Part shown: one piece after another, positions 5,654 to 27,542 of the stretch | How the letters are laid out: each line of letters begins with the position of its first letter | How positions within the stretch are numbered: position 1 is the first letter of the stretch | Source of the DNA: a virus | DNA: 27,542 bases | Reading direction: 5' to 3' (one strand) | IMG/VR virus record: IMGVR_UViG_3300008107_000303 | Span: 1 to 27,542 of that record | Made by a program: the position numbers and the translations under genes | Notes under the pieces: model-generated | The model's input: only the letters and a program-made list of their open reading frames with translations | What the model was told of the DNA's origin: nothing | Databases searched by the model: none

Positions 5654-6739
5654 ATGGAAATCAAAGGAATGAGGCTTGTAAACGACGAGCCGAAGTCTAA
5701 GGCAGAAATCGAAGAGCAGTTGCTTGAAGAACATGCTAAAGAGACGCAAGAAGAGATTAAAGAAGAACCAAAGGCAGAAACGCCAGAAGTTATAAATGAA
5801 GAGCCAGTTAAACTAGCTCTTAATGATGAAGACGTTCTTTCATATATTAAAGAAAAAAAGAACCTTGAGATAAACTCTCTCGATGAATTTGATGCTCTTA
5901 TGCAGAAGCGTAATGAGCCTCAGATAGACATTGATGAAGAGGCTCTTGCATACAACAAGTACAAGAGGGAGACAGGTCGTTCTATCGAGGAGTTTATAAA
6001 GCTTCAGAAAGATTGGACGAAAGAAGATCCTGAAAGTACGTTGCGTGAGTTCTATCGTCAACAAGACCCAGACTTAACACAGCGAGAGCTTGAGTACAAG
6101 CTAAGGCAGTTTAAGTATGATGAGGACATTGATGACGAGGACGAGATTGCAGAGAAACGTCTCAAGATGAGAGAAGAGCTTAAGAAGGCTGTTGGTCATT
6201 TCGAGTCTCAAAAAGAACAGTACAAGATGCCTGTCGCGTCGGCAGACAACTTTGTTCCGGAGAGCGAGCGAGAGAACTATAAGTCTTACAAGCAATATAA
6301 GGAGTCGATTGGCGAAGTCGAACAAGAGAATCGTAAGAGGTCTCAATACTTTGCAGAGCAGACTGACAAATTGTTTTCAAGTGAGTTTGAAGGTTTCAAG
6401 TTCAAGCTTGGCGACAAGGACGTTAGTTGGAAGCCAGCAGAGGCTAATGCACTAAAGGATGCCCAGTCTGATGTCAGTAAATTCATCGGACAGTTCTTAG
6501 ATGACAAGGGGTATCTTAAAGATGCAGAGGCATTCCATAAAGCTATTGCTGTGGCAATGAACGCAGAGAGGTTAGCATCTTTCGCATACGAGCAAGGAAA
6601 GGCTGATGGTATCGGTCAGCTCGAGAAAGAGTCTAAGAACATCGACATGGTTCGTGAGACACCAAAGGTAGCTAAGGACGGAGGCATTAAGATGAGGATC
6701 GTAAACGACGGACAGCCAGACTTCAAGATAAGAAAGTAA
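5654..6739 (+). CDS. Acidic scaffold-like protein upstream of MCP
   Basis: The 361 residues are highly charged (many Glu, Lys, Asp), low in cysteine and mostly predicted helical or disordered. The first 60 residues are Glu/Lys-rich (EEQLLEEHAKETQEE). The segment from about residue 100 to 230 has coiled-coil character. The gene lies immediately before the major capsid gene, the usual place for a scaffold, and no separate prohead protease is visible in this window. The motif MRLVND-x-P at residues 6-13 is echoed at the C-terminus as MRIVND-x-x-P (347-355). The final stretch GQPDFKIRK is basic, consistent with a capsid-binding tail. Function is assigned from position and composition; direct homology was not recognised. 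Confidence 0.65.
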   Translation: MEIKGMRLVNDEPKSKAEIEEQLLEEHAKETQEEIKEEPKAETPEVINEEPVKLALNDEDVLSYIKEKKNLEINSLDEFDALMQKRNEPQIDIDEEALAYNKYKRETGRSIEEFIKLQKDWTKEDPESTLREFYRQQDPDLTQRELEYKLRQFKYDEDIDDEDEIAEKRLKMREELKKAVGHFESQKEQYKMPVASADNFVPESERENYKSYKQYKESIGEVEQENRKRSQYFAEQTDKLFSSEFEGFKFKLGDKDVSWKPAEANALKDAQSDVSKFIGQFLDDKGYLKDAEAFHKAIAVAMNAERLASFAYEQGKADGIGQLEKESKNIDMVRETPKVAKDGGIKMRIVNDGQPDFKIRK

Positions 6740-6764: not shown

Positions 6765-8162
6765 ATGGCTGGATCTATTACATCGGGTAGCGTATCGCTA
6801 ACCCCAAGTGCAGTTAAGGCGACGTTGTCGTCTAACTACATCTCAACTTTCGACTTGCTCGATCAGTATTTACCTGATCTTGATGAGAAAGAATTTGCTC
6901 GCTACGGAGAGCGTACTATTAGCGGATTCCTTTCTAAGATGTCTGCTGAACTTCCTTCTAACTCTGACCTTATTCGTTGGTCTGAAGAAGGTCGTCTTCA
7001 CACTAAGTATGAGAACGTTTCAACAACAGGTGCTGTATCTTCAGGAACGCAGACTTTCGACATCGGAGCTTCAAACCATAACTTCCGTTTGAATGAGACA
7101 GTTCTTCTTTCTTCTGCTTCAGACAACAAGGCTGAAAAAGCAATTGTAACTGCTATTGCTCCTGGCGGTGATGCTACTCAATTTACTGTAGCATACTACT
7201 CTGCTGCTGTTGGTGTAGGATTCACAAACCCTACTACAGATATTAAGGTGTTTGTTTACGGTTCTGAGTTCAAGAAGGGTGAAAGCGGAATGCAAGGATC
7301 TCTTGAGGCTGAAACTGAAGTATTTCAAGTTAAGCCTGTTATCATCAAGGATACTTTCTCTATCTCTGGTTCTGACATGGCTCAAATCGGATGGATTGAA
7401 GTTGAAACTGATATGGGTCTTTCTTACCTTTGGTATTTGAAGTCTAAGTCTGATACGCGTAAGCGTTTTGACGACAAGCTTGAAATGATGATGATTGAGC
7501 ATGTAAATGCAGACGCATCTTCTGGAGCTGATACATATTTCGGTGCTACAGGTACATGGGGTACAACAGGTTTATTTGAAGCTATCGAAGATCGTGGTAA
7601 CGTATGGTCAGGTGGTACTCCATCTACTCTTGCTGACTTCGATGATATCCTTGAGCAACTTGACGGACAAGGTTCTATCGCTGAGAACACATTGTTTATC
7701 AATCGTGCGTTCTCTTTGGCTATCGACGATATGTTGGCTGCACAGAACTCTTACGGAGTTGGTGGTACGTCTTACGGTTTGTTTGATAACAACGAGAAGA
7801 TGGCATTGAACCTTGGATTCACAGGATTCCGTCGTGGTTCTTATGACTTCTATAAGACTGACTGGAAATACCTTAACGATGCTACTACTCGTGGAGGTCT
7901 TGTTGGTGGTAAAGTTAACGGAGTACTTGTTCCAGCTGGAACTACTAACGTATACGATGAGGTTATGGGTAAACGAGTAGCTCGTCCGTTCCTTCACGTT
8001 CGTTACCGTGCTTCTGAGACTGAAAACCGTAAGTACAAGAACTGGATCACTGGTGGTGCTGGTGGTGCTACAAATAGCGATGTGGATGCGATGTATTGTA
8101 ACTTCTTGTCAGAGCGTGCGCTTTGTACATTGGGAGCTAACAACTTCTTCATCTTCAAGTAA
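6765..8162 (+). CDS. Major capsid protein, HK97-fold, crAss-like type
   Basis: Builds the icosahedral shell. The 465 residues begin MAGSITSGSVSLTPSAV and contain features I associate with crAss-like capsid proteins: GSEFKKGESGMQG (from residue 166), IIKDTFSISGSDMAQIGW, WYLKSKSDTRKRFDDKLE, and a C-terminal GANNFFIFK. Residues about 90-165 form a Thr/Ser/Ala-rich beta segment that may be an insertion in the E-loop region. Codon choice differs from neighbours: arginine is almost always CGT/CGC with little AGA/AGG, and C-ending codons are common, as expected for the most abundant virion protein. It has an A-rich leader and is followed at once by a strong terminator. The call is well supported by sequence pattern and location. 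Confidence 0.87.
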   Translation: MAGSITSGSVSLTPSAVKATLSSNYISTFDLLDQYLPDLDEKEFARYGERTISGFLSKMSAELPSNSDLIRWSEEGRLHTKYENVSTTGAVSSGTQTFDIGASNHNFRLNETVLLSSASDNKAEKAIVTAIAPGGDATQFTVAYYSAAVGVGFTNPTTDIKVFVYGSEFKKGESGMQGSLEAETEVFQVKPVIIKDTFSISGSDMAQIGWIEVETDMGLSYLWYLKSKSDTRKRFDDKLEMMMIEHVNADASSGADTYFGATGTWGTTGLFEAIEDRGNVWSGGTPSTLADFDDILEQLDGQGSIAENTLFINRAFSLAIDDMLAAQNSYGVGGTSYGLFDNNEKMALNLGFTGFRRGSYDFYKTDWKYLNDATTRGGLVGGKVNGVLVPAGTTNVYDEVMGKRVARPFLHVRYRASETENRKYKNWITGGAGGATNSDVDAMYCNFLSERALCTLGANNFFIFK

Positions 8163-10165: not shown

Positions 10166-11044
10166 ATGACAGAACAAACGTATTATAGTAATCCGGATAA
10201 CTGGGGATCGTATCAAGACACATCGCTTTCTGAGCTTGTGACAAACTTCATGCTTATACACACTGGCAACGACACGCTTGTTGGTAAGACTACGAGGGGC
10301 AAGGTTTTGTTCTACGCAAAGCAGGCTATACAGACATACAACTATGACGCGGCAAGGGAGCCTCGTGTGTTTGAGTACATCGTTCAAGATGACTTAAAGA
10401 TGATACTTCCTCATGACTACATAAACTACATTCGTATCTCTCTTGAGATTGAAGGAAGACTGTTTACCATGCATGAGAACTTGCAGGCTATATCTGCTAT
10501 AGCATACGATCAGGACGTTAATGGCAACCTTCAATTCGACATAAATGGTAATGTGCTTACGACTACATCCCAGCTTGATACCAGTCGTCTTAACCAGTCT
10601 ATATACTACGGGCCTGGTATCTATGACGGTTGTGCCGGTTGGTGTGTTGATGGTGTATGGGTATTCGGATATGCCCGTGGTGGTTATTATGGACTTGATA
10701 CGGACAGAGCGCGTTCTACCCCATCGTTCAGGATCAACAAAAGGGCAGGAATAATTGATTTCGATTCCAATATTTCTGGTCAAAGAGTTGTACTGGAGTA
10801 CATTTCTGACGGACTATATGCAGGAGACTCCGAGACGTATGTGCATAAGATGGCTGAGAAGTGGATATATGCATACATAAAGTGGTGTCTTCTTGAGAAC
10901 AAATCAGGTGTTCAAGAGTACCTTGTTAAAAGAGCTAAGAATGAGCAGTCTTCACTTCTAAGAAACTTGAAGATATCTCTTAGTAATTTAGCCGCAGGAA
11001 GACTGTTGATGGTAATGCGAGGTAAGGACAAAACAATTAAGTAA
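10166..11044 (+). CDS. Tail ring / connector protein (292 aa)
   Basis: MTEQTYYSNPDNWGSY begins a protein with features typical of Bacteroidota phage connector or ring proteins. These are VLFYAKQAIQTYNYD (helical, residues about 45-60), ILPHDYINYIRISLEI, a FDINGN segment, a Gly/Tyr-rich loop (YYGPGIYDG, GYARGGYYG), an FRINKRAGIIDFDSNISG hairpin, then VVLEYISDGLY and a helical C-terminal part. Cys-x3-Cys at CAGWC is unusual for the family and could be structural. It starts three bases after the previous stop and overlaps the muzzle gene by one base, so co-translation is likely. The general role is fairly safe, the exact position in the tail is not. Confidence 0.72.
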   Translation: MTEQTYYSNPDNWGSYQDTSLSELVTNFMLIHTGNDTLVGKTTRGKVLFYAKQAIQTYNYDAAREPRVFEYIVQDDLKMILPHDYINYIRISLEIEGRLFTMHENLQAISAIAYDQDVNGNLQFDINGNVLTTTSQLDTSRLNQSIYYGPGIYDGCAGWCVDGVWVFGYARGGYYGLDTDRARSTPSFRINKRAGIIDFDSNISGQRVVLEYISDGLYAGDSETYVHKMAEKWIYAYIKWCLLENKSGVQEYLVKRAKNEQSSLLRNLKISLSNLAAGRLLMVMRGKDKTIK

Positions 11045-14000
11045 TGGCTGACCTAAAGAATACATTTATACAAGGCGTTATGAACAAAGACCTTGACGAG
11101 CGCTTAGTGCCTCAAGGTCAATACAGAGACGCATTAAACATTACAGTAGAAACATCAGAAGGGTCTAACGTTGGAGCGGCACAGAACTCGTTAGGCAATA
11201 CTTCTGTTCCTAACAACCTAGACACAAAGACAGGGTATCCAAACGACAACTCAAGGTGTATAGGTGCTGTTGTTTACGAGGCGGCTAACAAGATATACTT
11301 CTTTATATCTTCAGACTCATACGATGGCATATACGAGTATGACGCTAATGAGGAGGAGATGCGAAGAGTTCTTCAGTGTACAAAGAACCCAACGTCAACG
11401 CTTAACTTTAGAAAAGAGTACGCCATAACTGGTGTCAATCATATCGTTGGTGCTGACGGTAATACGTTCTTGTATTGGACAGATGACTACAATCCTCCAA
11501 GAAGGGTGAACATATCAAGGGTTATATCCGATCCTGATGGTATTGGTGGTTACTCTATAGACGACCCAAGGATAGAGTACGATATAGATGTTATACTTGA
11601 GCCGCCAATGTATTCTCCTCACATTGAGTTGAGTGTAGACGAGACTGATCCAGAGGCAAACAACATGAAGGAGAAGTTCTTGTTCTTTGCTTACAGATAT
11701 CAGTATGTTGACAATCAGTATAGCTCACTATCTCCATTCTCTGCAGTAGCATTTGCTCCGGAAGACTACGAGTATGACTATGGCGTGGGCAACAACAAGT
11801 CGATGACCAATGCGTACAACCAAGTAAAGATATCTTTTGAGACTGGCAATGAGTTCGTAAAGGCTGTGCAGTTGGTTGTTCGTGACACACGAAATCTAAA
11901 TGTAGGTATCATTGATACTTATACGAAGGATGAACTGACAAGTTATAGTCAGTTAGGTGACTCTGCTACTTTGACGTTTAAGAACAACAAGATACTGGCA
12001 GCTCTACCTACAGACCAAGTGACACGACTGTTTGACAATGTGCCACTACTTGCTAAGGCGCAAGACGTTATTGGCAATAGGCTAGCTTATGGTAACTACT
12101 TGCAGTTTAGAGACATAGTTGATTGTACGGGTGATGAGATAAAGATAGACTATACATTGAATGTAAAGACATCTGACACAGCTACTCCTTCAACTCCAAA
12201 GCCAACATGGCATTCAGACCGTGACTATGAGTTTGCGCTACTGTATACAGACGGATATGGACGTATGACCACAGCGCTTACGTGTGATACTAATTCAGTG
12301 TACGTTCGCCCTGAGTTAAGTACTACAGCCAATCAGATCGTCATGACGATAAACAGTAAGCCTCCGTGTTGGGCTACTCACTATCGTATTGCTGTTAAGG
12401 AGAGCAAGACGAAGGTGTACAATATATTTCCAGTTCTTTATTATGTATCAGGTTCTTACCGATACTTTCTAATAAATCAATCTGACGTTAATAAGCTAAA
12501 GGTTGGCGAGTATGTTATATTTAAGTCTGACAATGATGGATCAACTCAGACAAACAAAAAATATAAAGTACTTGAGGTAGAGACAAAGACAGCAGGATTT
12601 ATATCCGGAGGTATATCTGAACTTGGTGGAGTATATTTTAAGATAAAGGTTGATTTTTCAAATGAGTTTCCAGCAAATGCTGTAACAAATTATGTGTATG
12701 AATCGAATGGTATAGGACCAAATGCAAATTCAAACGCACCATTGTACCCCAATCCTGTAACTAGTAGATTTTCTACAGTAGAACAACCAATACATTATGG
12801 ACAAGGAGACCCAAATGGAATTAGCACTCATTCATATGTACCAAACTTTGGCTTTACGGACACTAGATTTACTATTGAAATATTAAGTAATACAACATTT
12901 CAATACACGAGTCAAATAGATGCATCATCTGGATGGACACAAGGTACTATTATACAAGGAACTGAAACACAATTATTAAGAAGTGGGTTCCATATTGCTA
13001 GCATAGTATTTAATAGTAATAATTATGTTGTTGGTGATAGGTGGAAGGTAAATGCAAGAGGATTAAACCATTTTAATGGTAATTATTTTGGAGGAGTTGG
13101 TCTTCCAAATGGTCAATATGGAGAAGGTGATTATGGTGGAGGTGTAATAGTTAATAATGGATTTACATCACCAATACTTCCAGGATCAGTTGTTAGGATG
13201 CAGATGATACAAGATTTAGAAGGATCTCCATATACATCAGAGCAGATATTCCCTCAATCTCAGTCTTATTATCAAAATATAGAAGAGTGGTTTGTTGAGT
13301 CTGGAGCATACACATTGTTTCAACAATATAATAAAGAAGGTGAGCCAATTTTAAATTCTCAAGGTGTTACATTTAGAAGGGGATTATCAGTTGATTCAAA
13401 CTCATTTGCACAGTTTTCTTGGGAATCAATAACACAAGGATCTGGCACAGATCCTATGTATATGATAGTTCAAGGATATGGTTATGGAGAAGGTGAAATA
13501 AATGAGGTTAAATTCAAACTTTCAATTTCTCAACTTGATGCCACTGTAATTTGCGAAACATCTCCAAAAGACAAGGACGCAGAAATATACCACGAACTAT
13601 CACAGACATATCCTATAGAAAACGGATGGCATGCTGTGAATTGGCCGTTCACTGCATCTGAAGCAGTAGTTACAGGTCCGTTTGCTGGTAAGACAAGACT
13701 AAAGCTTACAGACAAGTCGAGACCTCACTACTTTACTGTCGGTGACTCTGTAGAGGTAGATGGAACTGATTACGATGTACTTGCGACAAGAGACAGATAT
13801 CAGATAACAATAGACAAGAACTGGACTGGTGCTGTCACTCCTGGAGGAGTCAAGCTGACAGGATCGGATAACCAAGACCAAACAAATGCATTTGTTCCAG
13901 CTATTATCGAGATAAATAACCCTGACAACTATAACTGTGACTACAATGCATGGACTTGGGGTAATGGTCTTGAGTCTGATAGGATATATGACGACTTCAA

Positions 14001-14934
14001 TGATACTACATTGGAGTTCTCTCCAAGAGCTACTACTGTAATAGAGAACTATAAGCAGATACGCAATGATGCATCAATTTGCTATAGTGGCATCTATAAT
14101 GAGAATACTCAGTATAACAGACTGAATGAATTTAATCTTAGTCTATCTAACTTCAAGTATCTAGACAGAGAGTTTGGAAGTATTCAGAAGCTACATGCGA
14201 GAGACTCTGATCTAATAGCATTCCAAGAGAACAAAGTGTCAACAGTGCAGTATGAGAAGAATGTGTTGTATGATGCTGTTGGTGGAGGTCAGGTTGTGTC
14301 TATACCGGAGGTGCTTGGCGGTCAGATACCATTCACTGGTGAGTATGGGATAAGTAAGAACCCAGAGTCATTCGCTCAATGGGGAAATCAGATATTCTTT
14401 ACTGACGCAAGAAGAGGTGTTGTTCTTGGTGTTACGACTACTGAGATAGGATCAAGGGATCAGCTTTTTGAGATAAGCTCTTTTGGTATGCGAGACTACT
14501 TTAGAGACTTGATGGTAGATAATCCTATAACTCAAAAGCTTGGCGCATACGATCCTCACAATCATAATTATGTGTTAGCAAACACAACACAGAGAGCTAT
14601 ACCTTGTACATTGTCTATAAGCAGGACTGAATTAAAGGTTCCGAAGAATGGCCCTGTTGGCTACTTCTTATTTAGAATAACAACAGATGCTGCTTGGACT
14701 ATAACACTTATAAATGCAGGGTTTGGTACTAACTGGTTGTCAGATGTTCCAACATCGGGTATAGGGTCTCAAGATATATATGGCTCTGTAGCTGCTAACT
14801 TAACAGCAAGCAACAGATCTGTAGACGTTAGGATCACATATTGTGATGGGCTAATAAAAACATTTACATTAAGACAAGCTAAGGGTAAGTCTGGTACATT
14901 AGTTTCTGTCGTATTAAATAGTAAAGCACAATAA
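11044..14934 (+). CDS. Muzzle / P22 gp10-like stabilization protein with C-terminal BACON-like domain
   Basis: At 1296 residues this is the main tail-stub protein. The N-terminal signature NKDLDERL-x-P-x-GQYRDALN (14-32) is the hallmark of stabilization or muzzle proteins in crAss-like phages, and FAQWGNQIFFTDARRG (1110-1125) with a following SSFGMRDYF marks the conserved beta-propeller-like end. From about L1190 to Q1278 the pattern changes to LSISRTELKVPKNG...ITTDAAWTI...WLSDVPTSGIGS...AANLTASNRSVDVRI...LRQ. That is a BACON-type Ig-like fold, linked to carbohydrate or mucin binding in Bacteroidota. Residues about 530-835 use clearly different codons (T- and A-ending) from both flanks, suggesting a recombined variable module. 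It overlaps neighbours by one base on both sides. The core call is strong; the BACON call is by pattern. Confidence 0.82.
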   Translation: MADLKNTFIQGVMNKDLDERLVPQGQYRDALNITVETSEGSNVGAAQNSLGNTSVPNNLDTKTGYPNDNSRCIGAVVYEAANKIYFFISSDSYDGIYEYDANEEEMRRVLQCTKNPTSTLNFRKEYAITGVNHIVGADGNTFLYWTDDYNPPRRVNISRVISDPDGIGGYSIDDPRIEYDIDVILEPPMYSPHIELSVDETDPEANNMKEKFLFFAYRYQYVDNQYSSLSPFSAVAFAPEDYEYDYGVGNNKSMTNAYNQVKISFETGNEFVKAVQLVVRDTRNLNVGIIDTYTKDELTSYSQLGDSATLTFKNNKILAALPTDQVTRLFDNVPLLAKAQDVIGNRLAYGNYLQFRDIVDCTGDEIKIDYTLNVKTSDTATPSTPKPTWHSDRDYEFALLYTDGYGRMTTALTCDTNSVYVRPELSTTANQIVMTINSKPPCWATHYRIAVKESKTKVYNIFPVLYYVSGSYRYFLINQSDVNKLKVGEYVIFKSDNDGSTQTNKKYKVLEVETKTAGFISGGISELGGVYFKIKVDFSNEFPANAVTNYVYESNGIGPNANSNAPLYPNPVTSRFSTVEQPIHYGQGDPNGISTHSYVPNFGFTDTRFTIEILSNTTFQYTSQIDASSGWTQGTIIQGTETQLLRSGFHIASIVFNSNNYVVGDRWKVNARGLNHFNGNYFGGVGLPNGQYGEGDYGGGVIVNNGFTSPILPGSVVRMQMIQDLEGSPYTSEQIFPQSQSYYQNIEEWFVESGAYTLFQQYNKEGEPILNSQGVTFRRGLSVDSNSFAQFSWESITQGSGTDPMYMIVQGYGYGEGEINEVKFKLSISQLDATVICETSPKDKDAEIYHELSQTYPIENGWHAVNWPFTASEAVVTGPFAGKTRLKLTDKSRPHYFTVGDSVEVDGTDYDVLATRDRYQITIDKNWTGAVTPGGVKLTGSDNQDQTNAFVPAIIEINNPDNYNCDYNAWTWGNGLESDRIYDDFNDTTLEFSPRATTVIENYKQIRNDASICYSGIYNENTQYNRLNEFNLSLSNFKYLDREFGSIQKLHARDSDLIAFQENKVSTVQYEKNVLYDAVGGGQVVSIPEVLGGQIPFTGEYGISKNPESFAQWGNQIFFTDARRGVVLGVTTTEIGSRDQLFEISSFGMRDYFRDLMVDNPITQKLGAYDPHNHNYVLANTTQRAIPCTLSISRTELKVPKNGPVGYFLFRITTDAAWTITLINAGFGTNWLSDVPTSGIGSQDIYGSVAANLTASNRSVDVRITYCDGLIKTFTLRQAKGKSGTLVSVVLNSKAQ

Positions 14935-17798: not shown

Positions 17799-18706
17799 AA
17801 TTAATAAGCGCCCAGCCTGCCACTAAGTATTATGCGTGGCAGGTTGAGGTGTATCTTACACAGTTCTTGCGACTTGGCTATAATCCTAAAGATATACATA
17901 TTGTCGCAGGATACACGTATGACATTGATCAGTCTTGGGCGGATCTATATCACGCATATCCTGATGTGGAAATACAATTTTATAAGTACAAAGAAACGGA
18001 CTATGCGCCTGCTATGCAGTCTGCTGTTCTCGCTCAACACTTCAAGAAATTTGAATGGTTGAAAGACTGTGCTATATTTTTCCATGACGCTGACTTTGTG
18101 TTTACCAAGTACTTTGATTTTTCACCATTTCTAAATGAAGAGACATGGTACTTCAGTGATACTATCAGTTACATTGGAGCGGACTACATAAAGAGCAAGA
18201 GCCCATCTATACTCGATATAATGTGCGCGACAGTTGGTATAGACCGGTCAGTAGTTGAGGCAAACCAGCAGAACTCAGGTGGCGCACAGAAGCTTATGAA
18301 GAATGTAACTTCTGACTACTGGATGGAGGTTAATGTACACTCGAACAATCTATATGCACTACTGAAGAAAGTGTCTCATATCAAGCCTGAAGACCATCAG
18401 TACGGCATACAGATATGGACAGCATCAATGTGGGCAGAGCTATGGACAGCTTGGAAGAGAGGCTTTATTGTAGAAGTACCAAAAGAGTTTGATTTCTGCT
18501 GGGCTACTTGTCATATCAGTCGTTGGGATGAGCTGTCGTTCTTCCACAACGCAGGTGTTGCAGCTCCCAATAGAGGGCTATTTTATAAGGGCGACTTTAT
18601 TGACAGACTTCCTTATGGAGTTGATGTAGATGTGGACATGGATCATTGCAGTCGTAGGTACTATGAATTAATACAGTCCGTACAGACTAAATTAGTATCT
18701 TTGTAG
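17789..18706 (+). CDS. GT-A-like glycosyltransferase in the tail operon
   Basis: The 305 residues begin MRLKLISAQPATKYYAWQVE, an N-terminal pattern I associate with phage and bacterial nucleotide-sugar transferases. FFHDADFVF (H99-D100-A101-D102) gives a DxD metal and nucleotide-sugar binding motif after a hydrophobic strand. Further conserved-looking blocks are SDTISYIGADYIKSK, NSGGAQ (162-167), WTASMWAELW (from 210), FCWATCH (to 242) and HNAGV (from H253). There is no signal peptide or membrane segment, so it is cytoplasmic. Its ATG lies inside the end of the adhesin gene (10-base overlap), implying coupled translation and a linked function, plausibly O-glycosylation of that protein's Thr tracts. 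Acceptor and sugar donor are unknown. Modification of host surface glycans is the main alternative. Confidence 0.75.
   Translation: MRLKLISAQPATKYYAWQVEVYLTQFLRLGYNPKDIHIVAGYTYDIDQSWADLYHAYPDVEIQFYKYKETDYAPAMQSAVLAQHFKKFEWLKDCAIFFHDADFVFTKYFDFSPFLNEETWYFSDTISYIGADYIKSKSPSILDIMCATVGIDRSVVEANQQNSGGAQKLMKNVTSDYWMEVNVHSNNLYALLKKVSHIKPEDHQYGIQIWTASMWAELWTAWKRGFIVEVPKEFDFCWATCHISRWDELSFFHNAGVAAPNRGLFYKGDFIDRLPYGVDVDVDMDHCSRRYYELIQSVQTKLVSL
18696..18703 (+). promoter_or_regulatory. -7 promoter box inside glycosyltransferase 3' end, 4 bases before next ATG
   Basis: TATCTTTG encodes part of the final VSL residues and is followed by TAGT and the ATG at 18708. The 4-base spacing to the start equals that at 9407-9414, so a leaderless message is again implied. 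No -33 element is evident. Confidence 0.5.
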
Positions 18707-18707
18707 T

Positions 18708-19463
18708 ATGGCGGCAGATACACTGACATATTCACCTACAAGTCAAGGTTGGACATCACGTTGGTCATATCATCCTGACTGGATGATAGGAATGAATAAC
18801 ACATTCTATACTTGGAAGAACGGTCAGCTTTACAAGCACGACACCAATCAGGTTAGAAATCAGTTCTATATTGAGGAGGTTCCAGGACAGGGTGGAAACA
18901 ATGTTAACTATCCGTCTACAGTGACAACTATTTTCAATCAAGATCCTACAGAGATGAAGGTATTTAAGACGTTGGAAATTGAGTCTAATGAACCTTGGAC
19001 GGCAGACATAACGACAGATGTAAACACGGGTCAAATTGACGATGACTGGTTTGCAAAGAAAGAAGAGGGGTGGTTTGCTTATGTCAGAAGGGATGCAGGA
19101 GACCTTGACCACACGGCAATATCTACTCAAGGCATAGGTCAGTGTCAGACATTTTCTTCTCTTGTTATAACATTTGGGTTCGGCATTGGCAATTCAGTCA
19201 GCCAGGGTGATACTATATACAAACTATCTGGAGGGTCTTTAGTTCAAGTTGGAGCAGTGGCATCACATAACTATAACTCCATAACACTCGTGTCGGCAAT
19301 ATCCACTCCAGCCCCTGGCGACTTTATTGTATATGTAAAGAACAGTGTAGCTGAATCGTATGGAGCTAGAGGCGCTTGGATGGAAGTAACACTTTCTAAT
19401 AGTGACACTTCAGAGGTTGAGATATTTGAGGTCTCAACAAATGTATTCAAATCTTTCCCGTAA
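18708..19463 (+). CDS. Tail structural protein (251 aa)
   Basis: The opening TLTYSPTSQGWTSRWSYHPDWMIGMNN and the segments FYTWKNGQLYKHD, VRNQFYIEEV, FNQDPTEMKVFKTLEIES and FAKKEEGWFAYVRR form a pattern I associate with tail proteins of Bacteroidota phages, next to or fused with the muzzle/stabilization protein. The middle (around residues 160-205) is a Gly/Ser/Val beta segment, and the end GARGAWMEVTLSNSD looks like a closing beta sandwich. It carries no signal sequence. Here it is separated from the muzzle by the adhesin and glycosyltransferase, and has its own promoter-like box. The structural role is likely, the precise part is unknown. Confidence 0.7.
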   Translation: MAADTLTYSPTSQGWTSRWSYHPDWMIGMNNTFYTWKNGQLYKHDTNQVRNQFYIEEVPGQGGNNVNYPSTVTTIFNQDPTEMKVFKTLEIESNEPWTADITTDVNTGQIDDDWFAKKEEGWFAYVRRDAGDLDHTAISTQGIGQCQTFSSLVITFGFGIGNSVSQGDTIYKLSGGSLVQVGAVASHNYNSITLVSAISTPAPGDFIVYVKNSVAESYGARGAWMEVTLSNSDTSEVEIFEVSTNVFKSFP

Positions 19464-19502: not shown

Positions 19503-20111
19503 ATGTTTGGACTAATTTCAGCAGGCGTATCATTGGCAGGTCTTGGTATGAGCGCATTGGAGGCTATAAAGGCTAACAGAGAGATGAAGAAAGCTCAATC
19601 TGAAGCTAATGCCTCTTTAAATCAACTTGCAGGTCTAACAAGAAAAAATGTATATGCTGGAATGGGTGGAGCTGACGTATCTAGTGTACAAACTCAAGCC
19701 TTAAATCAGCAGACAGCACAAGGCATGCAAGCTCTACAGGGCATGGGTCCAGAAGCGGCAATAGGTGGAACTGCAAATATGCTTCAAGGTCAAGCAGCAG
19801 CTATGGCAGATATTACTCAAGCTCAAGCACAAGAAGATCAAAGAGTAAAAGAAATGATAGCTGGAGAGCAGTCTGCAATTGAGCAAGAGAATTTGGCTAG
19901 ACAAGAGGCAGTAACAGGATATAGAGCTGGAGCCGCAGTAAATGCTCAACAACAAGCAGCCGCTGCTAGGTCATCGGCAGTAGAGGGTATGTTTGGTTCA
20001 GCTCTTGGAGCACTTCAATATGCTAAAAGTGATTTCGACCCAGATACTGGGCTGTATGTTGGCACTAAATGGGGTCAAGGTCAATTGAATGAAAATCAAG
20101 GAAATCAGTAA
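19503..20111 (+). CDS. Ala/Gln-rich internal virion (pilot/cargo) protein (202 aa)
   Basis: The protein opens with a hydrophobic Gly/Ala/Leu stretch (LISAGVSLAGLGMSALEAI) that could be a membrane-seeking helix. It then becomes a long Ala/Gln/Glu-rich helical region with coiled-coil character (TQALNQQTAQGMQALQGM, QAQEDQRVKEMIAGEQSAIEQ). It ends in a short Gly/Tyr tail (DTGLYVGTKWGQGQ). This composition matches ejected internal proteins of short-tailed phages (such as P22 gp7 or T7 gp14 types) that line or extend the channel during DNA entry. It is the first of three overlapping or adjoining genes with a common promoter-like box, and overlaps the next by one base. Homology was judged by composition and place only. 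Confidence 0.65.
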   Translation: MFGLISAGVSLAGLGMSALEAIKANREMKKAQSEANASLNQLAGLTRKNVYAGMGGADVSSVQTQALNQQTAQGMQALQGMGPEAAIGGTANMLQGQAAAMADITQAQAQEDQRVKEMIAGEQSAIEQENLARQEAVTGYRAGAAVNAQQQAAAARSSAVEGMFGSALGALQYAKSDFDPDTGLYVGTKWGQGQLNENQGNQ

Positions 20112-21664
20112 TGGCACTAGAAGATGTGGGATACATAAGTCGCGGCACAATTGATTGGGCTGGACTTACAAATAAAATAGCTGAAGGCATAAATCAAATT
20201 GGTGTCGATCAGAAAAAAGCTAGGGAGGAAAATCAGGCTACATTTGACCAAACAAACTCTCTATTAAACAAGCCATTAAATTTAGAGAAGCAGTCTCTAA
20301 ATACTTTTGTTATTAGCTCGTCTGATGCTGCAAAGAATCAACTCTTAGAAGCAAAAAGAGCTCTATACAATAGAGAGATATCTTCAGCAGAATATAAAAG
20401 AATCGCTGCAAATATGCAGGAGCATTGGCAGAACTTCGCTGAACAAGCAAAGACAGCTGACGAAAGATTCAAGTTATACCAAGAAAGAAATACGCCTGAC
20501 GCTAATGGCGTTATCGCTGCATCTAATGCAGAGGACTTTCTTATGGAGCAGTATCTAAATGCTGCCGACTTGAATAACAAGAAGATGGTCATAGGTAAGG
20601 ACGGTTCAATGTATCTTCAGCAGGTGGATCCAAACACTGGAGAGCAGGTTGGCGATCTTATTGACTACCGTGACTTTGCTCGTCCTGAAAATATGCAGAT
20701 AAACCGCATAAACTTATCTGAGGCAGTTAAGAACATCACAGGTAACTGGGCTTCATTTCAAGAATGGACAGATAAAGGTCGTGGCGGAGAGGAAACCGTT
20801 GAGTCTATTAGACTACAGCCTAAATATGAAGAAGCAAAAATAAATGCTGTAAATGCTATCATCAGCAATCCGAAAGCAGCTCTATCTGTAATTGTAGATA
20901 ATGGAGTACCAGGAGGTGGTATGTACTACATGAAAGATACAGAGGGCGATCGAATGATACAAGAGGAGATGGTTAAGAAAGAGGCAGCTAAAGGCAGTCC
21001 TCTTACTGAAGATGAAAAAAAGCAAATACGAATGTCTGCTGTTAAGTTTACAAAAAATGATGCAGGCGAGTATGTTCCTGAGCTTACGGACGAGCAGATG
21101 GAATTTGCAAAAGGTATAGCTGACAGAGCTATTGACATGCAGATGGAATATAGCATTACCGGTTCTCCAAGACAGCAATGGTCTTCTGGCGGTGGTGGCG
21201 GAGGCGGATCTAAAGATAGTGTTGCAATAAATGCTTACATAGCTTCTGCTGACGCAGTAACTAAAGGTGATTTTGCTGGATTTGACACTGACAATTATAG
21301 GTTTGAGTCTAAAAAAGATGCATCTGGTAAGCCATATGTACTCATAAAAAGAGTACTAAAAGATGGAAAAGGAGGTATTTTTGTAGATCAAAATAATCCA
21401 GTAAAGGTATATAGTCCTGAAGGAATGACTCAATACTTAAAAAATCTTGATGGAGATGTTCCAATGTACTTTAGGGGTAAAGAAGACTACAAAAAACTAT
21501 ATGGAGACGAATATTATAAGCCAGGTCAGCCTGCAGGATCGGGTGGAAAGCCATCTGCAACCACAATAAAAGCATCTGACATACCAGCAAAAGCAAAAGC
21601 AGCTGGATATACAACAGATGAGTACAAGAAGTTATTACAGCAAAAAGGTATCAAAATAATATAA
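20111..21664 (+). CDS. Internal virion/cargo protein (517 aa)
   Basis: Residues 1-130 are helical and Gln/Lys/Asn-rich (NKIAEGINQIGVDQKKAREENQ). The middle has mixed fold (MYLQQVDPNTGEQVGDLIDY, DYRDFARPENMQINR), then a run of seven glycines (360-366) acts as a flexible linker. The C-terminal part (KDSVAINAYIASADAVTKGD...GQPAGSGGKP) ends in AKAAGYTTDEYKKLLQQKG, a short helical motif of the kind found at the ends of phage internal proteins. No enzymatic motif is visible. It overlaps the previous gene by one base (TAATG) and lies one base before the giant gene. It probably travels in the capsid or tail and is ejected, judged from its place and lack of signal peptide. Confidence 0.65.
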   Translation: MALEDVGYISRGTIDWAGLTNKIAEGINQIGVDQKKAREENQATFDQTNSLLNKPLNLEKQSLNTFVISSSDAAKNQLLEAKRALYNREISSAEYKRIAANMQEHWQNFAEQAKTADERFKLYQERNTPDANGVIAASNAEDFLMEQYLNAADLNNKKMVIGKDGSMYLQQVDPNTGEQVGDLIDYRDFARPENMQINRINLSEAVKNITGNWASFQEWTDKGRGGEETVESIRLQPKYEEAKINAVNAIISNPKAALSVIVDNGVPGGGMYYMKDTEGDRMIQEEMVKKEAAKGSPLTEDEKKQIRMSAVKFTKNDAGEYVPELTDEQMEFAKGIADRAIDMQMEYSITGSPRQQWSSGGGGGGGSKDSVAINAYIASADAVTKGDFAGFDTDNYRFESKKDASGKPYVLIKRVLKDGKGGIFVDQNNPVKVYSPEGMTQYLKNLDGDVPMYFRGKEDYKKLYGDEYYKPGQPAGSGGKPSATTIKASDIPAKAKAAGYTTDEYKKLLQQKGIKII

Positions 21665-21665
21665 T

Positions 21666-24600
21666 ATGCCAGAATTTGATGAATTCGGAATTCCGATAAG
21701 ATCTAAGTCGAAACCTACTGTTGACGAGTTTGGTATTCCTATTAAAAAAAAAGAACCTACGGCATCACCTTCTCAATCGGTTCAAAAACCTTCTTCATCG
21801 GCTACTCAAGGCAAGAAAAAGTCTCAGCCTTCGGTATCTTCATACGAGGTAATAAGTGAGAGAAAACTTCCTGATGGATCATACCAAACAGTTATAATGG
21901 GTGATGCTGGAAAAGGAAGAAGAGCATATGCAATAAAAAAGTCTCCTGATGGAAGAGAATCGTGGTATGAATATAGTCATACAAGTCAGGCAGGCGACAA
22001 GTGGCTTGACATATATGATAAGCCTATAACAGATCCATCAAGAGTTTCTACACTAAATAAAAAATTTGGTAAAAAGGCATCAACAGTATCGAATCAAGAC
22101 ATATTCACAGGATTTCCTAATAAAGAAGAAAATGAATATCGTGTTGACAAGCTAGTTAATGGTCAAGAGGTATGGTCTGTAAGACGTAAAGGTCAAGAGG
22201 AGTTCACTGTTATATCTGATGAAGGTTCCATAAGTGCGTTAAATCGTCAATTCGGAAAATCTGTAAAACCATCTGAAGATGCTAAGAAAAAACGTGAAGC
22301 TCAAATAACAAGGCAGCAGTCTTACACAGAATTCAAAGACATAAATACTGAATTTGTAGGTGGAGAAGAGGAGGAAGCTGTAGTAAAACTTCGCAATGAT
22401 TATGGCAAACTAGGGTTCAAGTTTGATGAAACAGGTAAGGGAGATCAGGTAAGAGTTACTGCTTCTAATGGGAAACAAACTATAATAAACCTTGACAACT
22501 GGACAGACGAGACAGATAGAGAGAATGCTAGAAATTTGCGTAAATTCTTACAAGAAAATCAGCAATTAGGAGATTATGTTGACTTGGAAAATGAAGAGAT
22601 AAAAAAGTCTAAAGAAAAATATCTTGACATAACTAAAGTTGATTTTGACGAACAGAGGGCTAGACTTATGTCCGCTGGGTCTCAGAAGGAGTTTGAAAAA
22701 GCTAAGGAAGAAAATGCGAAAGAAATAGCTTCAAAGCCAATAGCTGCTTTAGGAGCTGAGGCAATGGAGTTAAGAGAAAAGATAGTTACTGGTGACTATA
22801 ATAGACAACAAAGAATAGCTGATCTTAGCCGTGTAGCTAATACAGAGGAGGAAAGAAAAGATTTAGCCGCTATAGCTGTAGCTAATAGAGACTCATTTGT
22901 TCAAAAGAATAAGATAAATGACAAATATGTCAATGACTTAGCGCTTTCAAGAAAAGATGTAGTAAATGAATTGAGCGAATTAAATAAAGAGATAGAAAGG
23001 GTAAACTCTTCACAATCATCAATGACAGAAGAAGAGTACAACTCTGAAATGTCAAGACTTAAAACTGAGTATGATGATTTAATAATTAAAGACAATCAAA
23101 TAAATTCAGACATAAATAAGGTATACACGATAGAGGAGCAAAATCAAAAAGATGCTGCTTTATATTTCGCATACAATGAGCAGCAAGGTAGCGTAGGAGG
23201 TGGGCTTTGGAATAGCTTTGTTAAAGGCGTATTCGGATTTACAGGATTAGTGGATCCAGATGCCCCAGACTTTTTTGCTAAAATGCTTGGTAGCGAAATG
23301 ACTACAGAAGAATTTATGCAATCAGAAGACAGGTGGGATATAACAAAAGCATCGTTTTCAGTTGCTGAGTCTGTTGGTGCTTTAGCTGCTGCTGTACTTA
23401 CTGGAGGAACTACTAAAGCTGCTGGAGCAGGAAAAATATTGACAAAATCAGCAGAAACTCTTCCATTTTTCTCAATGTCATACAATGAGATAAAGTCTGA
23501 AATGGACAGCGAAGAGTTTAAGGGTATACCGTCATGGCAAAAGGAAGGTCTTGCAATTATTTATGGCCTTGGCGTAGGTTATCTTGATAAGTTGTCTACT
23601 ACTTTTGGAGCCACAGGTAAGATACCTCAAGCTATATCTAAGGGGATTATATTTAGAGCCATATCTGGACTTGGTAAGGATGCAACCACTGATGCTATTG
23701 AAAGAGCCATTGCTTCTCAATTCAAAAAAGATATAGCAGCTGGCTTAATAAAAATTGCAGGAGGAAATGTATTAGAGGGAGCCACTGAAGGTGTTCAGTC
23801 TTTGTATGGATCTGCTCTTAAAGCTGGATTCAATTGGATGCAAGGTAAGGATGAAAATGGAAAGGAAATAAAACCATTTGATGTATCTAATTGGGCAAAA
23901 GACGCATTATATGAGGCATATATGGGTGCGCTTGGCGGAACAATAATGAGTGTTCCTTCTGGAGCTGTAAGGGGTATAAAGAATGGATTCAATAGATTAA
24001 GTCCATCTTATATGGAGATGACAAAAAAAGTCATCGAAGACTCTAACCTCAGATCAATGCTCATCACAGACATTAAGACAAAACTTATGTCTGGCAAGAT
24101 AACAAAAGATGAAGCTCAGGAGCAAATAAATGCAATAAAAGAAGCGTCTGGTCTATTTGCAAAGATGCCTGACAATCTATCTCCAGAGGGTGTAGCCCAG
24201 TCTACTGATCTTTTGATAGAGCGTTCAAAGATAGAAAAAGAAATTGCCGGAAAGGAGGACAACCTGGTTGTTGCTCAGAAGGCAAGGATAGCAGAAATAA
24301 ATAACGAACTACAAACAATCAGTCAAAATGCCGTTCAAAAGCAAACAACAAGTGAAGTACCTGTACAGCCAGAATCCGAAGTTAGCGGAGAAGTGGCGCA
24401 AGGAAAACCCAAAGCAGAACCTCAAGGCGCTACCAAAGAAGGTGTCAGCAAAGAAGAAATAGCAGCAAAGGAAGAAGAGTTTAATGCAGCTTGGGATGAG
24501 AAGAATGCATTACGAATGAATCTTATAGAGCAAGGTCTTACTGAGGATGAAATTCTTGATAATGAAGAATTTATAGCTAAAAATAAGATAGCATCAAGCT

Positions 24601-27542
24601 TATTATCAGAACTAAATGAGCTCAATGATAGATCGAAGAAGGCCGTTGCACAAGCCGCGCAGCCAGAAGCAGATCTTGGCGATCGCGCTGTCGAAGGCAG
24701 GAGTGAAGCGGAAGTAACTACTACTCAACCTACTTCTGTTCAGCCGACAACAAGACAAGTTGTAAATAGACCAGCTACTTTATCTGAATATGGTGGAACT
24801 ACATTTGATTCTCCATTAAAAGGAGATGTATATGTTGAAGGTCAGCAAGTTGTTTTTGAAGATCGAGCTACTGGAAGAATTTACGAATTAGGAAATGTTG
24901 ATCAAGTTATAGACACTCAAGTACCTGGTCTTAACACTGAGCAAGAAAGAATCTCTATAACTAGGGAAGGAAAAGTTTCTATAGATGGAAACAATTGGAA
25001 TATTCAGTCAGAACTTCCAACGCAAGGAATAGAATACACGCCTGCTGGAGAAGTAATGAGGGTATCTTTGAAAGATGATACAGGCAGAACAGCAATGTTT
25101 GATGGTCAAGATGCCATTGATATAGCCTATCAGATAGAGCTTCAGAAGTACCAGACTCCAGAACAACAGCAATTTATTAATGAATTATTAGAGCAAGATG
25201 AAGAATTCAAGCAAGCAACAGCAAATATCAAACCTACAGAAGCTGCAGCAGTTGTCGAAGAAGAAGCAGCTCCAGATACTGTACCGGTTGCAGAAAAAGA
25301 AGTAGATGATGAAGTGAGTAGACTTGAGGAATTTTTTGGGAAGAAAACTCCTAAGTTCCAAAAGGGAGAGCAAGGTGCTGTTGATTTTGATGATGTGGAT
25401 AAGATAACAGAAGAAATAAATCAGATGCCTGAAGATAGTGCTAATTTTGATGTTCCATCAAACTTGAGTACTAAAAACAAGTCAAACATAAAATCTTTAA
25501 TCAAAAGATTTGCTCAAAAACTAAAGTCTATTAAAAACGGAGGTATAATAAAAGATATATCTGAATTTAATGGAATACCATTTATTTTTACCATATCTGA
25601 TCAACTATCATCTGGACAGGTTAAAAATCCATTTACAGGAAACACAATAGACGTGAATGGAGGGCTTGGGTTCAGCCTTACTGATGGGAATGAAAATAAT
25701 GCTTGGGCGAATACTACATCTGCAGAAGCAGAGAAGACATTGTCTAGAGCAAAAGAGGTATATAACAAAAACAAGGATTTATTTGACAGGCTTTGGGCAG
25801 AAGGGAAATTACCAAATGGCCATGTACCTATGGCTGTAGTAAAAATGGGTCAAGACTCAATACTTACTAATGAGGCTTTATTTAGATTTGCTGCAGACAC
25901 TATAAGAAAGAATTTTTCAAAATCAGAAAGAACAGACTCATTAAATGGTCTTATAGAGGACATAGTTGACTTTGAGATAGAATCAGAGAATAGGCGTAGA
26001 GAAAAGGCTGGGGAGAAACCTATGAGTGACAAGGAGATAGATTCAATGTCAAAATCTGTAATGTCTTCTGATAAAGTCATCAAATTCATAAAAGACAAGA
26101 AGTTCGGAACTATAGACGAGCTACTTGATAACATGAATGAACTAACACCAATAAGTAGCAGGGCAAGAATAACAAAAATACTTTTTACTGGAAGTGTAGA
26201 CAAGAAGACGAATCCAGAAAGAGGTAATGTAACAAAAAAGTCCGCTCTTGCACTTGTTGGAAATAAAGATAAATCGTTTAGAAAATATATACACCTTAAC
26301 ACTATAAACGAATCAATACAAGAAGAGGCCACTAAGGATATACCAAAGAATCATGTGATAGCGATTGTTGGAGTAGATGTTATAAATGGGAAAGTAACGT
26401 CATCAAGTAACGGAGAAGTCGTTCACAGAAATTACCCTTATGGAGTAAAAGGTAAATTGATAGGGGTTCTTGAAAATCCTGTAAATGTTGCTGACGTATT
26501 TCCAGAAGCATACGCTAGGGTTTTTGTAATGAATAAGCCTAACAAGAGTGGCGTATTCCCATCTGTAGATGTAACTGTGGATCAAGCCATAGCTTCTAGC
26601 GGAGCTATAGCATCAATGAAGACACTAAGAGGAGCTAAACTATCTTCAAAAATCACAGATCTACAGAAGCTTCTAGCTAAAATGAGGATAGCATTTCCTT
26701 CTGTTTCAGTCTTTGAAACTCAAGAGGAATTCAACAAGGCAATTCAAGATCCAAATGTAAACAAGTTTATAAGAAAGGGTGATGTTATCTATGGCTTCAC
26801 TATAGATGGAAAAGTTTATTTAAATCCAGAAAAAGCTAATTCTAATACGGCCATACATGAATTTGCACATATATGGATGGGATTCCTTAGAGAAAACAAT
26901 CCAGAGTTACTAAGAAAGGGGTTCTCACTATTAGAAGGAACTGACATACTTAGAAAGAAGATAGAAGAATTTGGAGATACTGATCTTGCAAGAGAAGAAG
27001 CAATGGCTGAGATAATTGCAAGTAAAGGAGAGGCTATAATTGAAGCTGGAAAAAAATCTAAATTCAAGAATTGGCTTAATGCTACATTCAATTATATAAA
27101 GTCTAAGTTTAAGGCATTTGATAAATTGACACCTGAAGAGTTCCAAAAGTTGTCACTAAATGAATTTGTAGATGGATCTCTGAGTGTTCTTCTTGGTGGA
27201 AAAGAGGTAACTGAAGCTGACATAAAGTCACTCCAGGTGATGTTCTCAAAGACCAACAAGATAGATGACATAATATCTATAGCTAGAGAGAACGGGTTTT
27301 CTGATGCTGCTATAAAGAAATATTTAGAGAAGTCAGGATTTGATCAGAAAGATATTAACGCTGCAATGAAGCAGAGAAAAGCTCCATCTGTATCTAAAAT
27401 ACTCGGAAAGCCTGCACCCAAGAAAGTTACTGTAAACGAAGCAGCAGCACTAAAAGATCAACTAAGACTTGAGGCTCGTGCTGCTCGTCAGTCTTCACAA
27501 TCACTCAAACAAAAGCAACGTCAGCTTGTAGCTCTCATCAAC
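21666..27542 (+). CDS. Giant multidomain internal virion protein with HEFAH metallopeptidase motif (5' part, runs off window)
   Basis: One open frame of 1959 codons with no stop up to the window edge, starting one base after the preceding stop. The N-terminus has a doublet DEFGIPI (5-11 and 20-26). Two related modules end in LNKKFGK (130) and LNRQFGK (192). Coiled-coil, Glu/Lys-rich stretches follow, then a Gly/Ala hydrophobic region (about 564-590, 625-645, 751-770) that may insert in membranes. A disordered Gln/Thr/Glu-rich part comes next, then a compact region at about 1280-1640 (GGLGFSLTDGNENNAWANTT). A zincin motif HEFAH (1731-1735) has candidate third ligands E1777/E1778 or E1782 in REEAMAE. 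This resembles large polyvalent proteins of Bacteroidota phages. Likely ejected cargo; the peptidase may act on host or phage proteins. Confidence 0.78.
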   Translation, partial: MPEFDEFGIPIRSKSKPTVDEFGIPIKKKEPTASPSQSVQKPSSSATQGKKKSQPSVSSYEVISERKLPDGSYQTVIMGDAGKGRRAYAIKKSPDGRESWYEYSHTSQAGDKWLDIYDKPITDPSRVSTLNKKFGKKASTVSNQDIFTGFPNKEENEYRVDKLVNGQEVWSVRRKGQEEFTVISDEGSISALNRQFGKSVKPSEDAKKKREAQITRQQSYTEFKDINTEFVGGEEEEAVVKLRNDYGKLGFKFDETGKGDQVRVTASNGKQTIINLDNWTDETDRENARNLRKFLQENQQLGDYVDLENEEIKKSKEKYLDITKVDFDEQRARLMSAGSQKEFEKAKEENAKEIASKPIAALGAEAMELREKIVTGDYNRQQRIADLSRVANTEEERKDLAAIAVANRDSFVQKNKINDKYVNDLALSRKDVVNELSELNKEIERVNSSQSSMTEEEYNSEMSRLKTEYDDLIIKDNQINSDINKVYTIEEQNQKDAALYFAYNEQQGSVGGGLWNSFVKGVFGFTGLVDPDAPDFFAKMLGSEMTTEEFMQSEDRWDITKASFSVAESVGALAAAVLTGGTTKAAGAGKILTKSAETLPFFSMSYNEIKSEMDSEEFKGIPSWQKEGLAIIYGLGVGYLDKLSTTFGATGKIPQAISKGIIFRAISGLGKDATTDAIERAIASQFKKDIAAGLIKIAGGNVLEGATEGVQSLYGSALKAGFNWMQGKDENGKEIKPFDVSNWAKDALYEAYMGALGGTIMSVPSGAVRGIKNGFNRLSPSYMEMTKKVIEDSNLRSMLITDIKTKLMSGKITKDEAQEQINAIKEASGLFAKMPDNLSPEGVAQSTDLLIERSKIEKEIAGKEDNLVVAQKARIAEINNELQTISQNAVQKQTTSEVPVQPESEVSGEVAQGKPKAEPQGATKEGVSKEEIAAKEEEFNAAWDEKNALRMNLIEQGLTEDEILDNEEFIAKNKIASSLLSELNELNDRSKKAVAQAAQPEADLGDRAVEGRSEAEVTTTQPTSVQPTTRQVVNRPATLSEYGGTTFDSPLKGDVYVEGQQVVFEDRATGRIYELGNVDQVIDTQVPGLNTEQERISITREGKVSIDGNNWNIQSELPTQGIEYTPAGEVMRVSLKDDTGRTAMFDGQDAIDIAYQIELQKYQTPEQQQFINELLEQDEEFKQATANIKPTEAAAVVEEEAAPDTVPVAEKEVDDEVSRLEEFFGKKTPKFQKGEQGAVDFDDVDKITEEINQMPEDSANFDVPSNLSTKNKSNIKSLIKRFAQKLKSIKNGGIIKDISEFNGIPFIFTISDQLSSGQVKNPFTGNTIDVNGGLGFSLTDGNENNAWANTTSAEAEKTLSRAKEVYNKNKDLFDRLWAEGKLPNGHVPMAVVKMGQDSILTNEALFRFAADTIRKNFSKSERTDSLNGLIEDIVDFEIESENRRREKAGEKPMSDKEIDSMSKSVMSSDKVIKFIKDKKFGTIDELLDNMNELTPISSRARITKILFTGSVDKKTNPERGNVTKKSALALVGNKDKSFRKYIHLNTINESIQEEATKDIPKNHVIAIVGVDVINGKVTSSSNGEVVHRNYPYGVKGKLIGVLENPVNVADVFPEAYARVFVMNKPNKSGVFPSVDVTVDQAIASSGAIASMKTLRGAKLSSKITDLQKLLAKMRIAFPSVSVFETQEEFNKAIQDPNVNKFIRKGDVIYGFTIDGKVYLNPEKANSNTAIHEFAHIWMGFLRENNPELLRKGFSLLEGTDILRKKIEEFGDTDLAREEAMAEIIASKGEAIIEAGKKSKFKNWLNATFNYIKSKFKAFDKLTPEEFQKLSLNEFVDGSLSVLLGGKEVTEADIKSLQVMFSKTNKIDDIISIARENGFSDAAIKKYLEKSGFDQKDINAAMKQRKAPSVSKILGKPAPKKVTVNEAAALKDQLRLEARAARQSSQSLKQKQRQLVALIN

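What the first reader, a model, noticed from the sequence alone, without database searches (positions are those of the whole stretch)
26820..27090. Zinc-peptidase motif in an ejected-type giant protein
HEFAHIWMGF at residues 1731-1740 with REEAMAE 45 residues later fits a gluzincin-like active site. A peptidase delivered with the genome could cut host defence or surface proteins, or process the giant protein itself. The substrate is unknown.
Basis: partly seen in the sequence, partly recalled or inferred. Interest (0 to 1): 0.55.

Follow-up and report, generated by a model that had tools for sequence, protein, structure and literature searches.

The report
Swappable peptidase in phage ejection protein
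A giant protein that a Bacteroidota-infecting phage probably injects with its DNA carries a genuine-looking zinc-peptidase domain, which sits with a constant partner domain in a slot where related phages carry other enzymes, so it looks like one interchangeable tool for the first minutes of infection.

Summary
The motif is real: HEFAHIWMGF at residues 1731-1740, REEAMAE at 1776 of a giant ORF cut by the contig end. The domain (about 1640-1853) belongs to a widespread phage family: 107 of 107 distinct copies keep HExxH and a third-ligand glutamate, E1778. In loci found through the neighbouring domain alone, 77 of 78 keep HExxH and 76 of 77 the glutamate. AlphaFold gives a zincin layout (pLDDT 85.9); leading structural matches are metallopeptidases, none decisive (Z up to 7.3). 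The peptidase is not part of the conserved body: of 63 giants with the same C-terminal body, 7 carry this zincin, 25 another HExxH domain, 31 none; the slot can hold ART, kinase, acetyltransferase or ParB domains. A ~400-aa partner domain precedes it in 79 of 80 loci found by that partner; the last contig ends there. Best reading: an exchangeable early-effector module of a polyvalent protein, acting after ejection on a host protein; required self-processing is unlikely. Substrate, activity and delivery are untested. New variant of a known kind (Iyer et al. 2017).

The parts
21666..27542 (+). Giant protein gene (1959 aa seen, cut by contig end)
   Evidence: full-length relatives of 2719-3859 aa in L002, L003, L004, L009
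21666..24461 (+). N-terminal body (aa 1-932) shared with relatives that carry other cassettes; aa 3-49 with the DEFGIP repeats match the N-terminus of Cellulophaga phage phi38:1 gp101
25380..26630 (+). Partner domain (aa 1239-1655), found only directly before this zincin; strands interrupted by a long helical stretch in the model
26583..27224 (+). Zincin-like metallopeptidase domain (aa 1640-1853)
26856..26870 (+). HEFAH motif: H1731 and H1735 (predicted zinc ligands), E1732 (predicted general base)
26997..26999 (+). E1778, predicted third zinc ligand, in the second helix
27363..27542 (+). Start of the conserved C-terminal body (aa 1900 onwards; continues beyond the contig)
19503..20111 (+). 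202-aa protein at the place of small virion proteins shortly before the giant gene in elemoC, phi13:2 and phi38:1
   Evidence: synteny only; no blastp match
20111..21664 (+). 517-aa protein directly before the giant gene; C-terminus matches phi38:1 gp100 (structural protein)
11044..14934 (+). Muzzle protein (PF25731 crAss_MUZ, 53 bits against a cut-off of 27)
6765..8162 (+). Probable major capsid protein (phrog_13704 'virion structural protein'; 49% to elemoC gp28)

Best explanation
Residues about 1640-1853 are a zincin-like (gluzincin) metallopeptidase domain. With the ~400-aa partner domain before it, it forms one two-domain unit lodged in the exchangeable middle of a giant 'polyvalent' ejection protein of a crAss-like podovirus of Bacteroidota. 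Shown by sequence: the motif, its conservation with a third-ligand glutamate, the constant pairing, and replacement of the whole cassette by unrelated ones between close relatives. Inferred: the giant protein is packed in the virion and leaves through the tail with the DNA; the conserved N- and C-terminal bodies do the packing and passage; inside the host the unit refolds, binds zinc and cuts a host protein (defence, regulatory or envelope), the partner domain choosing or gating the target. Cutting the giant protein itself to free the unit is possible as an extra step but cannot be a general need.
For: Motif at the stated place, 0.0023 expected. H1731, E1732, H1735, W1737, G1710 and E1778 in 107 of 107 distinct copies (HExxH was part of the search pattern, E1778 was not). 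Test free of that bias: 80 loci found by the partner domain only, 77 of 78 with HExxH and 76 of 77 with the glutamate. AF2 model pLDDT 85.9, pTM 0.80: helix-strand-helix-strand-strand, HExxH helix, glutamate helix. Leading structural rows: anthrax lethal factor, PPEP-3, PprI/IrrE, ArdC, ACE2; lower down N4 vRNAP residues 2124-2348, the HExxH subdomain C1 of the N4 paper. Two-domain model pLDDT 89.7, pTM 0.87. Partner domain followed by the zincin in 79 of 80 loci, the other cut by its contig end. Slot occupancy 7 / 25 / 31 of 63; 14 of 33 pairs of giants with C-bodies at least 80% identical differ in class; L125 against L127 at DNA level 88.3% and 83.1% on either side of cassettes of 2.0 and 3.0 kb that do not align. 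Other occupants: ART-PolyVal 4 of 24; ddrB-ParB 3, Kinase-PolyVal 1, GNAT 1, Pol-beta 1 of 31. Synteny with cultured podoviruses.
Against: No PDB sequence match at E up to 5, no Foldseek PDB match at E <= 0.001, and VIA Z below 8, which the tool warns may be a common arrangement. HExxH also occurs in 2-oxoglutarate oxygenases (8s5f, Z 4.0), so hydrolysis is not proven. No proteomics or activity data. Delivery is inferred. Two natural copies have lost the active site (L246; second copy of L114), though both proteins hold another HExxH zincin. The window protein itself has no Pfam domain above cut-off.
Confidence: 0.6

Rival explanations
1. Self-processing enzyme: the zincin cuts the giant protein, in the head or after ejection, to free the cassette or let the long chain pass the tail.
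For: Proposed for MPTase domains of polyvalent proteins in general, with P1 DdrB processing as precedent (PMC5512222, passages). The peptidase sits between conserved bodies, and the partner domain is always next to it.
Against: 31 of 63 giants with the same C-terminal body have no HExxH in the slot, and phi13:2 gp127 and phi38:1 gp101 have none at all, so passage and assembly do not need it. N4 vRNAP with a comparable domain is packaged unprocessed (PMC5512222).
Confidence: 0.27
2. The HExxH domain binds iron and 2-oxoglutarate, or is another non-hydrolytic enzyme, rather than a peptidase.
For: 8s5f, an HExxH 2-oxoglutarate oxygenase, is among the structural rows (Z 4.0); the N4 paper raises the HExxH/radical-SAM parallel for its C1 domain; one of 96 members matched TIGR04267 at E 0.0078.
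Against: The invariant glutamate in the second helix, 47 residues on, is the expected gluzincin third ligand (established knowledge; also PMC5512222); most higher-ranked structural rows are peptidases.
Confidence: 0.08
3. A structural relic: the domain is a packing or docking module whose active site no longer matters.
For: Anthrax lethal factor domain I, a zincin fold without catalysis (recalled), is the top structural row; L246 and L114 show natural loss.
Against: 76 of 77 glutamates and 77 of 78 HExxH kept in loci found without the motif, while overall identity to the window domain falls to 18%.
Confidence: 0.05

Closest known systems
Zincin-like MPTase domains of phage and plasmid polyvalent proteins (Iyer et al. 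2017, PMC5512222)
   Same: HExxH helix and a glutamate helix after a small strand-rich core; in very large phage proteins; the same slot in relatives carries ART-PolyVal, Kinase-PolyVal, ddrB-ParB; predicted delivery with the DNA.
   Different: No Pfam or NCBIfam model covers this clade; whether it is one of their 12 clades was not testable. It is tied to a partner domain, and close relatives exchange the cassette.
Coliphage N4 virion RNA polymerase gp50, subdomain C1 (residues 2124-2375; PMC12633501)
   Same: HExxH domain inside a giant ejected protein; fold overlap 2124-2348 (Z 3.2).
   Different: No RNA polymerase domain recognised in the window ORF or in full-length L002; different phage lineage.
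Anthrax lethal factor / PPEP (M34-like) zincins
   Same: Highest structural rows of the zincin model: 1j7n_B Z 7.3, 5d1t Z 6.7, 9g5j_B Z 6.6.
   Different: No sequence match; secreted proteins, not virion cargo; similarity of fold only.
PprI/IrrE and ArdC
   Same: Zincin folds, Z 5.8 and 5.1; PprI responds to nucleic acid and ArdC is carried by a conjugative plasmid (recalled).
   Different: Smaller proteins with other partner domains; no sequence match.
Giant 'structural proteins' of Flavobacterium phage elemoC (gp20, 3694 aa), Tenacibaculum phage Gundel_1 (gp74, 2482 aa) and Cellulophaga phages phi13:2 and phi38:1
   Same: elemoC, phi13:2 and phi38:1: same gene order after TerL, portal, capsid, rings and muzzle. 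Gundel_1: a giant structural protein just upstream of TerL and portal in another gene order, with the orthologous zincin (A3 profile, 172.7 bits). elemoC: an HEIFH domain at residue 1543, 24% over 179 columns.
   Different: phi13:2 and phi38:1 giants have no HExxH.

Membership tests
Zincin-like metallopeptidase (gluzincin type) | HExxH on a helix | tested here: met
   Residues 1731-1735 in model helix 91-109; 77 of 78 in the motif-free sample
Zincin-like metallopeptidase (gluzincin type) | Third ligand glutamate on a following helix | tested here: met
   E1778: 107 of 107, 76 of 77, in model helix 137-162
Zincin-like metallopeptidase (gluzincin type) | Three-dimensional zincin fold | tested here: inconclusive
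   Secondary-structure order fits and the leading VIA rows are zincins, but Z < 8 and no Foldseek PDB match at E <= 0.001; ligand distances were not measured
Zincin-like metallopeptidase (gluzincin type) | Zinc binding and peptide hydrolysis | not testable with these tools
   Needs protein
Polyvalent proteins | Very large phage protein predicted to enter the cell with the DNA | tested here: inconclusive
   Size and gene position fit; delivery not shown
Polyvalent proteins | Several unrelated effector domains from the shared repertoire | tested here: inconclusive
   Window ORF: zincin plus an unassigned partner domain, no Pfam domain above cut-off. Relatives with the same C-body carry ART-PolyVal, Kinase-PolyVal, ddrB-ParB
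N4-type virion RNA polymerase | RNA polymerase domain in the same chain | tested here: not met
   No such Pfam match in the 1959 aa seen nor in full-length L002
M34-like (lethal factor, PPEP) | Sequence relationship to the family | tested here: inconclusive
   Profile search of PDB sequences empty; fold similarity only
PUA-like (YTH/ASCH) domain, for the partner domain | Fold match | tested here: inconclusive
   YTH 4rcj_A Z 7.0 over 149 residues, ASCH 5guq_A Z 4.2 and 5y6c_A Z 3.8; no such Pfam match among 16 members

The most novel reading that the evidence does not exclude
The partner domain is a PUA-like reader of (possibly modified) nucleic acid, and the unit is a phage-delivered, nucleic-acid-gated protease: on entering the cell it senses DNA or RNA and cuts a host regulator or defence protein, in the manner of PprI, with the two-domain unit traded between phages in both orders as an exchangeable warhead.
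Probability: 0.08. Interest if true: 0.85.

Novelty: new variant of a known kind. Interest (0 to 1): 0.52.

Why it matters
Zincin domains are the commonest domain of polyvalent proteins (PMC5512222), yet whether they process the giant protein or attack the host is open. Here nature supplies the comparison: giant proteins with C-bodies 84-93% identical that hold this zincin, another zincin, or none. That makes the question directly testable in flavobacterial phages, and it marks a defined slot in which early phage effectors can be looked for.

Tried and rejected
A conserved junction motif 'NAVQKQ' at the edge of the cassette as a cleavage site: the scan found it in 3 of 145 ORFs only (one further copy stands in the window ORF itself), so dropped.

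One search printed 23 loci as lacking HExxH; that was my too narrow pattern (HE[FY].H). Searches show HEMGH and the like, one true loss (L246) and one domain cut off before the motif (L256).

Partner domain against the domain behind the distant zincins: the small alignments gave only 7%, hardly better than a control (4.2%). With 78 and 15 sequences it rose to 92.5%, E 4.9e-7, with controls at 0.1-0.8%, and 11 of 25 single downstream segments scored 40% or more against at most 0.5% for 24 control segments. 14 of 25 scored lower, some near zero. I treat the relation as likely, not proven.

YTH/ASCH resemblance of the partner domain: Z 7.0 at best; kept as a lead only. Families absent from the structural rows are not taken as excluded.

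Papers: (crAss-like + zincin) found 0; one search unrelated papers; and one search found 0; some searches gave the polyvalent and N4 papers. I found no paper on this two-domain unit in these searches, which see only the open library. No virion proteomics was found in the passages read of PMC8776804 and PMC7077304.

Full report
What is there. The window is one IMG/VR record of 27542 bases. Its last ORF, 21666-27542, runs off the end after 1959 residues.

The phage. TerL, portal and a virion structural (capsid) protein match PHROG families 6681, 6547 and 13704, and ORF 11044-14934 matches the crassvirus muzzle model PF25731. TerL is 65.6% identical to MW202828, an uncultured podovirus, then 42.5% to the Flavobacterium elemo phages, 37% to Cellulophaga phi13:2 and 32% to Tenacibaculum Gundel_1; of the 87 matching records all but MW202828 are named after flavobacterial genera. 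In elemoC, phi13:2 and phi38:1 the same order ends in a giant gene labelled structural or virion structural protein; Gundel_1 places its giant gene just before TerL and portal. In the crassvirus structure, proteins encoded behind the muzzle gene are virion cargo for which an ejection model is proposed (PMC10172136, passages). That the window's giant protein is ejected cargo is inference from this.

The domain. A first scan gave 7 relatives, a profile scan 80 kept of 208 confirmed viral loci and 32 genome loci, the latter mostly Bacteroidota. A profile finds the domain in 118 of the 122 loci then held, not in L005-L008. Of 123 hits three lack the motif: two are second fragments of one domain, the third is a decayed second copy in L114 next to an intact one. 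Those three were dropped, and identical stretches merged, before the alignment of 107 distinct domains, in which H1731, E1732, H1735, W1737, G1710 and E1778 are all invariant. HExxH was in the search patterns, and W in the genome pattern; E1778 was in neither. Because of that bias I searched with the preceding domain alone: of 79 zincin hits 78 cover the motif, 77 have HExxH, and 76 of 77 have the glutamate; 64 of 66 distinct sequences have all of them. One of those two is only cut short before the glutamate (L243). The true exception, L246, has an HEAFH elsewhere in the same protein, as L114 has a second, intact copy.

Structure. AF2 on 96 sequences gives pLDDT 85.9 and pTM 0.80, with the zincin order of elements. 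Foldseek finds no PDB match at E <= 0.001. VIA rows are led by anthrax lethal factor (N-terminal domain 7.3, residues 564-776 6.7), PPEP-3 (6.6), PprI (5.8), ArdC (5.1), then ACE2; N4 vRNAP 2124-2348 stands at 3.2. The tool warns that Z under 8 may be a common arrangement; the weight lies in the conservation together with the agreement of the leading rows. BFVD matches include Gundel_1, elemoC and polyvalent-labelled proteins.

A fixed pair. The ~400 residues before the zincin form a domain present in 53 of 206 large ORFs, all 53 with the zincin; an iterated profile finds it in 78 of 112 zincin ORFs and in none of the other 94. In the 80 loci found by this domain alone, 79 have the zincin directly behind it (median gap 7 residues) and the last ORF ends with its contig 34 residues after it. 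The joint model has pLDDT 89.7 and pTM 0.87. Its best structural row is a YTH domain (Z 7.0), with ASCH at 4.2: a lead towards a PUA-like fold, no more. Stand-alone phage proteins of 420-470 aa in BFVD match stretches of 316-459 columns of the joint model, partly outside the zincin to judge by their length, so the partner may exist alone elsewhere.

An exchangeable slot. I then searched by the C-terminal body (80 of 110 loci kept). Of these, 67 are complete at the 5' side and at least 1900 aa long, 63 distinct. Seven have this zincin, 25 another HExxH, 31 none in the middle. The other HExxH domains as a set are distant relatives (22 of the 25 aligned; hhalign 97.1%, E 5.2e-11). Pfam on all 31 cassettes without HExxH: DUF7178 4, ddrB-ParB 3, Kinase-PolyVal 1, GNAT 1, Pol-beta 1; on 24 of the 25 others: ART-PolyVal 4. 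Among pairs whose C-bodies are at least 80% identical, 14 of 33 differ in class; L125 (zincin) and L130 (ddrB-ParB, no HExxH) are 93.3% identical there. L125 and L127 align at DNA level at 88.3% and 83.1% around cassettes that do not align. Behind many of the distant zincins lies a domain that is probably related to the partner domain, so the pair may occur in both orders.

Mechanism. Because the bodies persist with or without a peptidase, and cultured relatives phi13:2 and phi38:1 have giants without HExxH, the zincin is not needed for assembly or ejection in general. Its slot holds domains of different chemistry, several from the known repertoire of polyvalent proteins (PMC5512222, passages). 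I therefore read it as an early effector acting on a host protein after ejection, with facultative self-release as the main rival. Zinc binding, hydrolysis, substrate and delivery remain untested.

Comparison. It works like, and by its sequence features belongs with, zincin-like MPTase domains in polyvalent proteins; no Pfam or NCBIfam model covers it. It shows no N4-type polymerase domain. What this work adds is the constant partner, the motif-free conservation test and the clean cassette exchange.

Noticed in passing
window 11044-14934 and 18708-19463: The muzzle gene seems split: ORF 18708-19463 matches the muzzle C-terminal domain (PF25729, 57.7 bits) and the C-terminal end of elemoC gp24, with two ORFs between the pieces.
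   Followed up: partly
window 14934-17798: 954-aa ORF with long runs of threonine, tail-fibre-like by eye; no Pfam match.
   Followed up: no
window 17789-18706: 305-aa ORF inside the structural genes with a DxD-like stretch (FHDADFVF), glycosyltransferase-like by eye; no Pfam match.
   Followed up: no
window 21678-21740: Two DEFGIP repeats at the giant protein's N-terminus, in a stretch that matches the N-terminus of phi38:1 gp101 (44.6% over 56 columns); perhaps a packing signal.
   Followed up: partly
L246, ORF at 1975; L114, ORF at 5957: The two proteins with a decayed HExxH each carry a second HExxH zincin-type motif, as if one active copy were needed.
   Followed up: partly
L009 6046-17622: 3859-aa relative with two HEFGH motifs, residues 1615 and 2500 of the protein; only the second is the orthologue.
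   Followed up: no
L092 7541-14062: A zincin giant protein lies in a record titled as an Aenigmatarchaeota chromosome (CP070801.1); provirus or assembly mix-up was not resolved.
   Followed up: no
L002 6338-14494 and L003 5837-14464: The N-terminal bodies also change between relatives (L002 and L003: C-body 68%, N-body about 33%), so the giant protein is mosaic on both sides of the cassette.
   Followed up: partly
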